Of a stretch of DNA of 64,000 nucleotides, positions 49,894 through 51,453 are shown piece after piece; within the stretch, counting starts at the first letter, position 1; each line of letters starts with the position of its first letter. The translations under genes were made by a program, and so were the position numbers. Below the pieces are notes generated by a model. It had not been told where the DNA came from. It did no database searches and saw only the letters and a program-made list of their open reading frames with translations. Location of the stretch: contig NZ_QPMJ01000001.1 in assembly GCF_003369835.1 (NCBI RefSeq), positions 1,483,589 to 1,547,588 on the forward strand, read 5' to 3'. Source of the DNA: Halorussus rarus. Lineage in GTDB: Archaea; Halobacteriota; Halobacteria; Halobacteriales; Haladaptataceae.

Positions 49894-50358
49894 CTACTCG
49901 TACAGCCACTGCTCGTCGACGCGCTCGTAGTCGACCAGTTCGTCCTCGTCGAAGAACAGGTCGATCTCGCGCTCGTTCGCGCCGGGGTCCTCGTGGTCCG
50001 AGCCGTGGATGACGTTGCGACCGAGGTCCAGGCCGTAGTCGCCCCGGATGGTGCCTGGGGCGGACTCGGCCGGGTCGGTCTCGCCCATCATCTTGCGGAC
50101 CTGCCGGGTCGCGTCCTGGCCCTCCCACACCATGGCGAAGACGGGGCCGGACGTGATGAAGTCGACCAGGCCCTCGAAGAACGGCTTGCCCTCGTGCTCG
50201 CCGTAGTGCTCCTCGGCGAGGTCCCGGTCGATCTGCGTGAACTTGCCGGCGACCATCTTCAGGCCGCGCTCCTCGAGCCGGGAGACGATCTCGCCGATGA
50301 GACCGCGCTGGACGCCGTCGGGCTTGACCATCACGAAGGTGCGCTCGGACTCGCTCAT
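49894..50358 (-). CDS. ndk: Nucleoside diphosphate kinase
   Basis: A 154-residue protein, normal length. [20 protein letters not shown] begins it; the phosphorylated His is in RNVIHGSD (His118). It exchanges phosphate between ATP and other nucleoside diphosphates. The ATG overlaps the end of rpl24e by four bases, so it is last in the ribosomal operon. Confidence 0.97.
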
Positions 50359-50546
50359 TGCTCGTCCTCCTCGGCGCCGCCTTCCTCGGTCCACTCGAGG
50401 TCGCGGGGTTCGCGGCCGAGGTCGGCGTTCTTCTCGCACTTCGCCGAGCAGAAGTGGACGGTGCTCCCGTCGGTGCGGACGAACATCGTCCCGGTGCCGG
50501 GCTCGATGTCGTCCCCGCAGAAGTCACACTCTCGGGTCTGGGGCAT
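50355..50546 (-). CDS. rpl24e: Ribosomal protein L24e
   Basis: A 63-residue protein: [20 protein letters not shown] and [20 protein letters not shown], with the four Cys of the zinc finger (C-x2-C and C-x3-C). A component of the 50S subunit. It is coupled by overlap to ndk and lies three bases after rps28e. Confidence 0.96.
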
Positions 50547-50549
50547 TGG

Positions 50550-50777
50550 TTACTGACCTCCGATGGAGTCGGCCTCGCGGGCGGTCTCGCGCAGCTGCAG
50601 CACGTCGCCCTCGCGGACGGGGCCGAGGCAGTTCCGCGTGATGATGCGGCCCTGGTTCTCGCCCTCGCGGATGCGGCACTTGACCTGCATGGCCTCGCCG
50701 TGCATCCCCGTCTTGCCGACGATCTCGATCACTTCGGCGGGCGTGGAGCCCTCTTCTTCGGTTTCCTCTGCGCTCAT
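50550..50777 (-). CDS. rps28e: Ribosomal protein S28e
   Basis: A 75-residue protein: [20 protein letters not shown] and [20 protein letters not shown] match S28e of the 30S subunit. It is 12 bases after rpl7ae in the order rpl7ae-rps28e-rpl24e-ndk, the common haloarchaeal arrangement. Confidence 0.96.
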
Positions 50778-50789
50778 GACTCAACCACC

Positions 50790-51152
50790 TCAGCGGAGTT
50801 CCTCGACCTTGTCGGCGATGTCGTCGACGTCGTCTTGCGCTTCGCCGGCGTCGGTGACCGCGGCGGCGGCGCTGCCGACTTCGAGGCCGGCGGCGTGGCC
50901 GATGTCGTCCTGGGTCTCGACGAAGACGAAGGGGATGCCCTTCTCGTCTGCCAGCTCGGGGAGGTGCATCACGATCTCCTCGGGCTGGACGTCCTCGGCG
51001 ATGTAGACGAGGTCGGCGTTGCCGCGCTCGACGGCCTTGGTCGTCTCGTTGGTTCCTTTCTTGACGGTTCCGGTGTCTCGGGCGACCTCAAGCGCCTCGA
51101 CGGCGCGGTCCTGAAGGTCGGCTGGGACGTCGAAGTTTACGTATACTGGCAT
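50790..51152 (-). CDS. rpl7ae: Ribosomal protein L7Ae, kink-turn binding protein
   Basis: A 120-residue protein with the RNA-binding core [20 protein letters not shown] and [21 protein letters not shown]7Ae binds kink-turns in 23S rRNA, box C/D and H/ACA RNAs and RNase P RNA. It is first in its operon. The start is secured by a strong ribosome site. The leader carries a kink-turn-like structure, described separately, that may be its own autoregulatory target. Confidence 0.97.
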
Positions 51153-51158
51153 AGGTTG

Positions 51159-51168
51159 TTCACCTCCC
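51159..51168 (-). promoter_or_regulatory. Ribosome binding site of rpl7ae
   Basis: On the minus strand GGGAGGTGAA lies six bases before the ATG at 51152, a strong Shine-Dalgarno match. Its first base overlaps the 3' arm of the leader stem, so access to it could depend on that structure. Confidence 0.75.
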
Positions 51169-51237
51169 TGCGCGTCGGCTCAGGCTCCCCTGCCGGGCGA
51201 TTCCTGTGCGGCTAGGAGCATCATCAACCGCGCGCAG
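51168..51237 (-). ncRNA. Kink-turn-like leader of the L7Ae operon mRNA
   Basis: In mRNA sense: 5' arm CTGCGCG-CGG, then TTGATGAT (box C-like), GCTCC, a loop of about 26 nt, GGAGC, CTGA (box D) and the 3' arm GCCG-A-CGCGCAG. The outer stem has ten Watson-Crick pairs with one bulged A, and GCTCC pairs perfectly with GGAGC. The internal loop pairs UGAUGA with CUGA, which allows tandem G-A pairs as in kink-turns. A minus-strand TATA-like CTTTTAAG near 51264-51271 would start transcription just before the stem. The rest of 51238-51453 has no visible gene. Confidence 0.6.
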
Positions 51238-51453
51238 GTCGTACCCTTGCGTAGTTCGTCCCCCCTTAAAAGCGCTTTCAAATGCGCCGACGGCGTGCGA
51301 AACGAACGCAAGGGAGAGCGCGTCACTCGCGGCCGGGCGCGGTCTGCCGGTCGCTCCGTGGGCTCGGTTCCCGGGCAACCGTTCTGCCCTGCCTCCTCTC
51401 CGCCACTCCCTGCGAAGGAAAGCCCCTTGTCCGCCTCGCTCGAACCCCCGACC

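What the first reader, a model, noticed from the sequence alone, without database searches (positions are those of the whole stretch)
51168..51237. Kink-turn-like, box C/D-like leader in front of the L7Ae gene
The leader folds as a ten-pair stem with one bulge, an internal loop with UUGAUGAU facing CUGA, and a second five-pair stem. This is close to the RNA that L7Ae itself binds, and its 3' arm touches the strong ribosome site. Autoregulation of L7Ae through a leader kink-turn is known in some other archaea; a haloarchaeal case with this geometry would be worth describing. The bulge is not the standard three nucleotides, so the exact register is uncertain.
Basis: partly seen in the sequence, partly recalled or inferred. 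Interest (0 to 1): 0.75.

Follow-up and report, generated by a model that had tools for sequence, protein, structure and literature searches.

The report
Haloarchaeal L7Ae mRNA leader kink-turn
In salt-loving archaea the messenger RNA for ribosomal protein L7Ae begins with a hairpin that contains the kinked RNA shape this protein binds and ends at the ribosome-binding site, so the protein very probably switches off its own production; the principle is known, but this order-wide, unusually stable form has not been described in full.

Summary
Minus-strand RNA 51238-51167, in front of l7ae (ATG at 51152), folds as a 12-pair stem with one bulge, a kink-turn core and an inner stem. The same element precedes l7ae in all 80 haloarchaeal contigs fetched. 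It is also in 80 of 81 sampled genomes of the order, with no credible copy in about 312 other genomes of the phylum. In a second set of leaders, 20 of 23 pairs show double compensatory changes (164 cells, against at most 49 when partners are slid). The core fits a kink-turn: loop U, G1b, A2b and A1n are invariant in 136 distinct leaders. CUGA is not conserved (26/136); only its GA is. The usual loop has four nucleotides, but three in 11 leaders, which fixes the register. A TATA box 29-31 nt upstream in 118/128 places the hairpin at the mRNA 5' end; its 3' strand runs into the Shine-Dalgarno site. Best reading: L7Ae represses its own translation, as shown in Sulfolobus. Daume et al. (2017) tested a 50-bp Haloferax fragment and noted an upstream Kt-b strand, so the idea is not new. 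New here are the full structure, covariation, distribution and variant geometry. L7Ae binding to this form is untested.

The parts
51265..51271 (-). TATA-box-like element (TTTTAAG) of the l7ae promoter
   Evidence: A TTTA motif lies 29-31 nt before the C-stem start in 118 of 128 distinct leaders; this block is 93% identical across 9 Halorussus-like loci.
51239..51246 (-). predicted transcription start zone, immediately before the hairpin (inferred, not mapped)
   Evidence: Usual archaeal TATA-to-start distance applied to the constant TATA-to-stem spacing; inference.
51227..51238 (-). C-stem, 5' strand CCUGCGCGCGGU (last base U = -1b, wobble with G)
   Evidence: 9 of 12 pairs have double compensatory changes in A3, 97.8% of cells paired.
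51223..51226 (-). kink-turn loop L, here 4 nt (UGAU); last nucleotide U (L3 position) invariant
   Evidence: 4 nt in 125 and 3 nt in 11 of 136 distinct leaders; U invariant 136/136.
51221..51222 (-). Kt-b tandem GA (G1b, A2b)
   Evidence: Invariant 136/136.
51209..51220 (-). NC-stem, 5' strand UGCUCC-UA-GCCG
   Evidence: All 11 modelled pairs have double changes in A3, 90% of cells paired.
51202..51206 (-). apical loop motif CAGGA (AGGR conserved, role unknown)
   Evidence: AGG[AG] present in 134 of 139 distinct leaders, also where no complement exists in the 5' strand (for example L080).
51184..51195 (-). NC-stem, 3' strand CGGC-AGG-GGAGC
   Evidence: As for the NC 5' strand.
51180..51183 (-). 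Kt-n strand CUGA (G2n, A1n); 3n pyrimidine U
   Evidence: A1n 136/136; G2n 129/136, A in 7; CUGA itself only 26/136.
51167..51179 (-). C-stem, 3' strand GCCG-A(bulge 51175)-CGCGCAGG; last G shared with the Shine-Dalgarno match
51160..51167 (-). Shine-Dalgarno site GGAGGUGA
   Evidence: Matches the complement of the archaeal 16S 3' end (general knowledge); an SD-like match in 136 of 139 leaders, mostly 6-9 nt before ATG.
50790..51152 (-). l7ae (ribosomal protein L7Ae), first gene of the operon
   Evidence: Pfam Ribosomal_L7Ae E 2.3e-25.
50550..50777 (-). rps28e, same operon
   Evidence: Pfam Ribosomal_S28e E 1.6e-29.
50355..50546 (-). rpl24e, same operon
   Evidence: Pfam Ribosomal_L24e E 5.6e-23.
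49894..50358 (-). ndk (nucleoside diphosphate kinase), same operon
   Evidence: Pfam NDK E 1.1e-56.

Best explanation
The leader is the autoregulatory L7Ae-binding site of the haloarchaeal l7ae-rps28e-rpl24e-ndk operon. The mRNA begins almost exactly at a long, GC-rich hairpin interrupted by a kink-turn (loop NNNU or NNU, then G.A and A.G pairs). When L7Ae exceeds its needs in ribosomes and box C/D and H/ACA sRNPs, the free protein binds and kinks the hairpin. It then stabilises the C-stem whose 3' strand runs into the Shine-Dalgarno site, so that the 30S subunit cannot load and translation of l7ae (and probably of the coupled genes behind it) falls. Shown here: the conserved structure with compensatory changes, the kink-turn core, the position against the SD, and exclusive association with l7ae. 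Inferred: L7Ae binding, repression, the transcript start, and the effect on downstream genes. Unlike the weak stem-loops described for other archaea, this hairpin is stable on its own, so the switch is more likely the kinked protein-RNA complex blocking the ribosome than folding of a floppy stem.
For: All 81 loci (window plus 80) match the covariance model at the leader and nowhere else in those loci. 78 of 81 genomes of the order hit in a genome scan, 2 more at looser filters. All 79 leaders checked for it have l7ae directly downstream. Covariation in A2 and A3 far exceeds slid and shuffled controls. L3=U, G1b, A2b, A1n invariant and G2n 129/136. Eleven leaders have the canonical 3-nt loop, and -1b:-1n appears as U.G, C-G (L022) and U-A (L027). 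The only other match in the own genome is at chance level. L7Ae autorepression through a 5'-UTR kink-turn is shown in vivo in S. acidocaldarius (PMC5539422), and a crystal structure exists for the A. fulgidus leader with L7Ae (PMC6298567). The GAU bulge plus GA reported in those leaders is also present here.
Against: The usual loop has 4 nt (or 3 nt plus an extra U in the C-stem), and most leaders have an unpaired pyrimidine next to the A.G pair, so this is not a textbook kink-turn. The hairpin is very stable alone (median MFE of leader segments -53 kcal/mol), whereas the published model expects little structure without protein (PMC6298567). The SD is predicted only about 30% unpaired even without protein. 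No binding or expression data exist for the full haloarchaeal leader. The apical AGGR motif is not explained by L7Ae binding.
Confidence: 0.78

Rival explanations
1. The leader is a structured autoregulator, but the regulator is another product of the operon (S28e or L24e) or a complex of several, with the kink-turn as scaffold and the apical AGGR loop and internal loop as the real recognition site.
For: The apical AGG[AG] motif is conserved in 134/139 leaders without a pairing partner. Operon-mates S28e and L24e are ribosomal proteins. Bacterial r-protein leaders use various operon members.
Against: The most rigid positions are exactly those L7Ae-family proteins read (L3 U, tandem GA). L7Ae is the first gene. 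Autoregulation by L7Ae is demonstrated in Sulfolobus.
Confidence: 0.1
2. The hairpin is a constitutive 5'-terminal structure that stabilises the mRNA or sets a fixed low translation rate; the kink-turn merely shapes it, or is bound by L7Ae without regulatory effect.
For: Very stable without protein; at the predicted 5' end of the mRNA; SD partly occluded in predictions without protein.
Against: A plain stabilising stem needs no invariant UGA/GA core, yet that core is invariant across an order while helix sequences vary.
Confidence: 0.1
3. The element is processed out as, or acts as, a box C/D-like small RNA.
For: UGAUGA and, in some genera, CUGA resemble boxes C and D.
Against: CUGA is not conserved (26/136). 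The space between the boxes is a paired stem, not an open guide. No Rfam match. The element is tied to the l7ae SD and ATG in every genome.
Confidence: 0.02

Closest known systems
l7ae 5'-UTR kink-turn autoregulation (S. acidocaldarius; Daume et al. 2017, PMC5539422; A. fulgidus structure, Huang et al. 2019, PMC6298567)
   Same: Same gene, same site against the Shine-Dalgarno sequence, Kt-b with (G)AU loop followed by GA, Kt-n with GA, inferred same logic.
   Different: Long GC-rich hairpin stable without protein instead of a marginal stem; usual 4-nt loop; unpaired 3n pyrimidine; conserved purine bulge in the C-stem, apical AGGR motif and lineage-specific extra hairpins; hairpin at the predicted mRNA 5' end. 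The Haloferax fragment tested in 2017 was about 50 bp, while Kt-b lies 105-108 nt before ATG in the Haloferax loci, so the tested fragment would not contain this kink-turn, although the authors noted the upstream Kt-b in their legend.
Archaeal box C/D kink-turn (sRNA)
   Same: UGAUGA strand, U at the third loop position, tandem G.A pairs; U.U next to them and CUGA in Halorussus, Haladaptatus and several Haloarcula.
   Different: No guide sequences, no terminal C/D architecture, CUGA not conserved; cis-element of an mRNA.
Yeast RPL30 (L30e) leader kink-turn
   Same: L7Ae-family protein controlling its own mRNA through a kink-turn (cited in PMC6298567).
   Different: Eukaryotic, also controls splicing; unrelated sequence.

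Membership tests
l7ae 5'-UTR kink-turn autoregulatory element | Located in the 5' UTR of l7ae, adjacent to or overlapping the SD | tested here: met
l7ae 5'-UTR kink-turn autoregulatory element | Kt-b and Kt-n strands with tandem G.A / A.G | tested here: met
   G1b, A2b, A1n 136/136; G2n 129/136
l7ae 5'-UTR kink-turn autoregulatory element | Two helices flanking the core, supported by covariation | tested here: met
   20 of 23 pairs with double changes;
l7ae 5'-UTR kink-turn autoregulatory element | L7Ae binds the leader | not testable with these tools
   needs a binding assay
l7ae 5'-UTR kink-turn autoregulatory element | Translation falls when L7Ae rises | not testable with these tools
   shown for S. 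acidocaldarius only; a 50-bp H. volcanii fragment was down-regulated in E. coli (PMC5539422)
standard simple kink-turn | 3-nt bulge | tested here: not met
   window and 125/136 leaders have 4 nt (or 3 plus an extra C-stem U); 11/136 have 3
standard simple kink-turn | G.A and A.G pairs followed directly by the NC helix | tested here: inconclusive
   most leaders have one unpaired pyrimidine (3n) on the non-bulged strand; some can pair without it
box C/D sRNA | Conserved CUGA box D and guide sequence between boxes | tested here: not met
   CUGA 26/136; space between boxes is helical
any Rfam 15 family | match above gathering score | tested here: not met

The most novel reading that the evidence does not exclude
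Haloarchaea have turned the simple l7ae kink-turn switch into a larger two-part device: a pre-folded 5'-terminal hairpin with a 4-nt-loop kink-turn that L7Ae reads, plus a conserved apical AGGR loop that docks a second partner (the 16S 3' end as a standby site, or another r-protein of the operon), so that translation responds to two inputs.
Probability: 0.15. Interest if true: 0.7.

Novelty: new variant of a known kind. Interest (0 to 1): 0.48.

Why it matters
It would be an order-wide, covariation-supported translational leader in a group described as not typically using structured leaders (Babski et al. 2016, PMC4983044). It suggests that L7Ae autoregulation can work with a hairpin that is already folded, and it gives a natural series of 3-nt and 4-nt loops and of 2n=G and 2n=A kink-turns for testing L7Ae recognition. 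It also means that the 50-bp H. volcanii reporter of 2017 probably did not contain the natural site. A covariance model for annotation can be made at once.

Tried and rejected
Register with the first GA of UGAUGA paired (the box C/D reading): rejected, because the 3-nt-loop relatives keep only the second GA. CUGA as an essential box D: rejected by counts. Alternative hairpin UCCU/AGGA between the NC 5' strand and the apical loop: not kept in L080 or L150, where AGGGA remains, so rejected as a general switch. Mimicry of a 23S rRNA kink-turn: the 23S region around nt 200-330 of this genome shows no obvious primary-sequence resemblance (inspection only). Extra copies elsewhere: own genome none above chance; weak hits in G218 and G294 lie inside coding sequence. 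The own fibrillarin gene lies inside an operon and the model gives no hit near it; the leader of that operon was not read. Papers on TSS mapping and RNA processing in Haloferax/Halobacterium do not name L7Ae in the text searched; supplements were not readable.

Full report
What is there. The window lies in a genome close to Halorussus (nearest named relatives are 91-98% identical in L7Ae; own genome place). On the minus strand the gene order is l7ae-rps28e-rpl24e-ndk (Pfam); the divergent neighbour is tmcA. The single sequence folds with -45.1 kcal/mol, z -3.64, no shuffle as good. Rfam knows nothing here nor in twenty relatives.

Conservation. One scan of the genome collection gave 80 haloarchaeal l7ae loci, and every one carries the element at the same place. 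Within nine Halorussus-like loci identity to the window is 0.92-1.00 over the stems and the SD, 0.82 in the apical loop block, and falls to 0.1-0.6 upstream of the promoter. A covariance model from 42 leaders searched against 393 genomes of the phylum hits 78 of 81 genomes of the order at E <= 1e-9. Two further genomes carry a reduced copy found at looser filters (L113, L114). The last (L115) has instead a minimal hairpin that can be drawn as a kink-turn. Among about 312 genomes outside the order one weak hit appears, and there is one weak second hit within the order; both lie inside coding sequence. All 79 leaders checked for it are directly followed by l7ae. The only other hit in the own genome is at E 3.5.

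Covariation. On the plain MAFFT alignment, not fitted to the structure, 14 of 23 pairs have changes on both sides, 68 cells, against at most 28 in slid versions and 18 in shuffles. On the second set of genomes, 20 pairs and 164 cells against at most 49; that set overlaps in genera with the first, includes two chance matches, and its alignment is fitted to the model, which favours the structure. All eleven NC-stem pairs and nine of twelve C-stem pairs show compensatory change. RNAalifold on its own finds the same two helices, shifting part of the inner one by one base where the alignment has a misplaced gap.

The core. In 136 distinct leaders (the script's n-strand labels are off by one column, and I re-read them from the printed strings) the nucleotide before the bulged-strand GA is U in all, G1b and A2b in all, A1n in all, and 2n is G in 129 and A in 7. 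A 2n=A kink-turn bound by L7Ae is known from a crystal structure (PMC3985660). The loop is UGAU or CGAU (4 nt) in 125 and 3 nt in 11 (UGU, CGU, CAU). In the 4-nt form either of the two pyrimidines before GAU can pair with the -1n G, so the element can also be drawn as a GAU loop with one extra U in the C-stem. GAU is the loop of all six published leaders (PMC6298567). CUGA is found in 26 of 136; elsewhere CGA, UGA or AGA precedes the stem. Most leaders also have an unpaired pyrimidine at 3n.

Position. A TTTA motif lies 29-31 nt before the C-stem in 118 of 128 distinct leaders although the bases between vary, so the start of transcription should fall within a few bases of the hairpin; this is inference, not mapping. 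The 3' strand of the C-stem ends in the SD (GGAGGUGA here, AGGAGGUGA in many relatives). Predicted SD accessibility is about 0.31 without protein.

Mechanism. In S. acidocaldarius L7Ae represses its own mRNA through a 5'-UTR kink-turn, and a reporter with other archaeal leaders including a 50-bp H. volcanii fragment was repressed in E. coli (PMC5539422). In the Haloferax loci here Kt-b begins 105-108 nt before ATG, outside such a fragment. The authors noted an upstream Kt-b in the legend to their figure 5 and used another candidate in the fragment. The same paper saw high leader conservation only in Sulfolobales. The present data show strong conservation throughout Halobacteriales and give the full structure. 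I infer the same logic, with the difference that the haloarchaeal hairpin is stable by itself (median -53 kcal/mol), whereas the published leaders are weak. The kinked complex against the SD is then the likelier switch.

Unexplained. The apical loop keeps AGG[AG] in 134 of 139 distinct leaders, also where the 5' strand holds no complement. A purine bulge sits in the C-stem three pairs below the U.G in most leaders. Many families insert one or two extra hairpins between AGGA and the closing GGC.

Verdict. Observation confirmed, interpretation supported, novelty limited to a new, well-supported variant of a known regulatory element.

Noticed in passing
L116, L117, L119, L120, L122, L124 (upstream of l7ae): l7ae leaders outside the haloarchaea often carry a tandem GAUGA-NN-GAUGA before a short GC hairpin. 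In L116 the SD (AGGAGG) itself could form the 3' strand of the C-stem with CCU.
   Followed up: partly
L101, L102, L141, L153, L154, L170, L175, L176, L113/L114: One haloarchaeal family (f2) replaces 2n G by A in the kink-turn (CAAG or GAAAG).
   Followed up: partly
L115 (G134), just before l7ae: A small-genome relative has instead a minimal hairpin GU-AAU-GA-CGCGC-UUCUU-GCGCG-GA-AC, which reads as a standard kink-turn.
   Followed up: no
window 51202-51206 and all relatives: Conserved AGG[AG] in the apical loop without a pairing partner; might contact the 16S 3' end or a protein.
   Followed up: partly
window 51166-51153: In Halorussus and Haladaptatus the SD can form a small hairpin with the bases just before ATG (AGGUgaacaACCU); not general in the order.
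   Followed up: no
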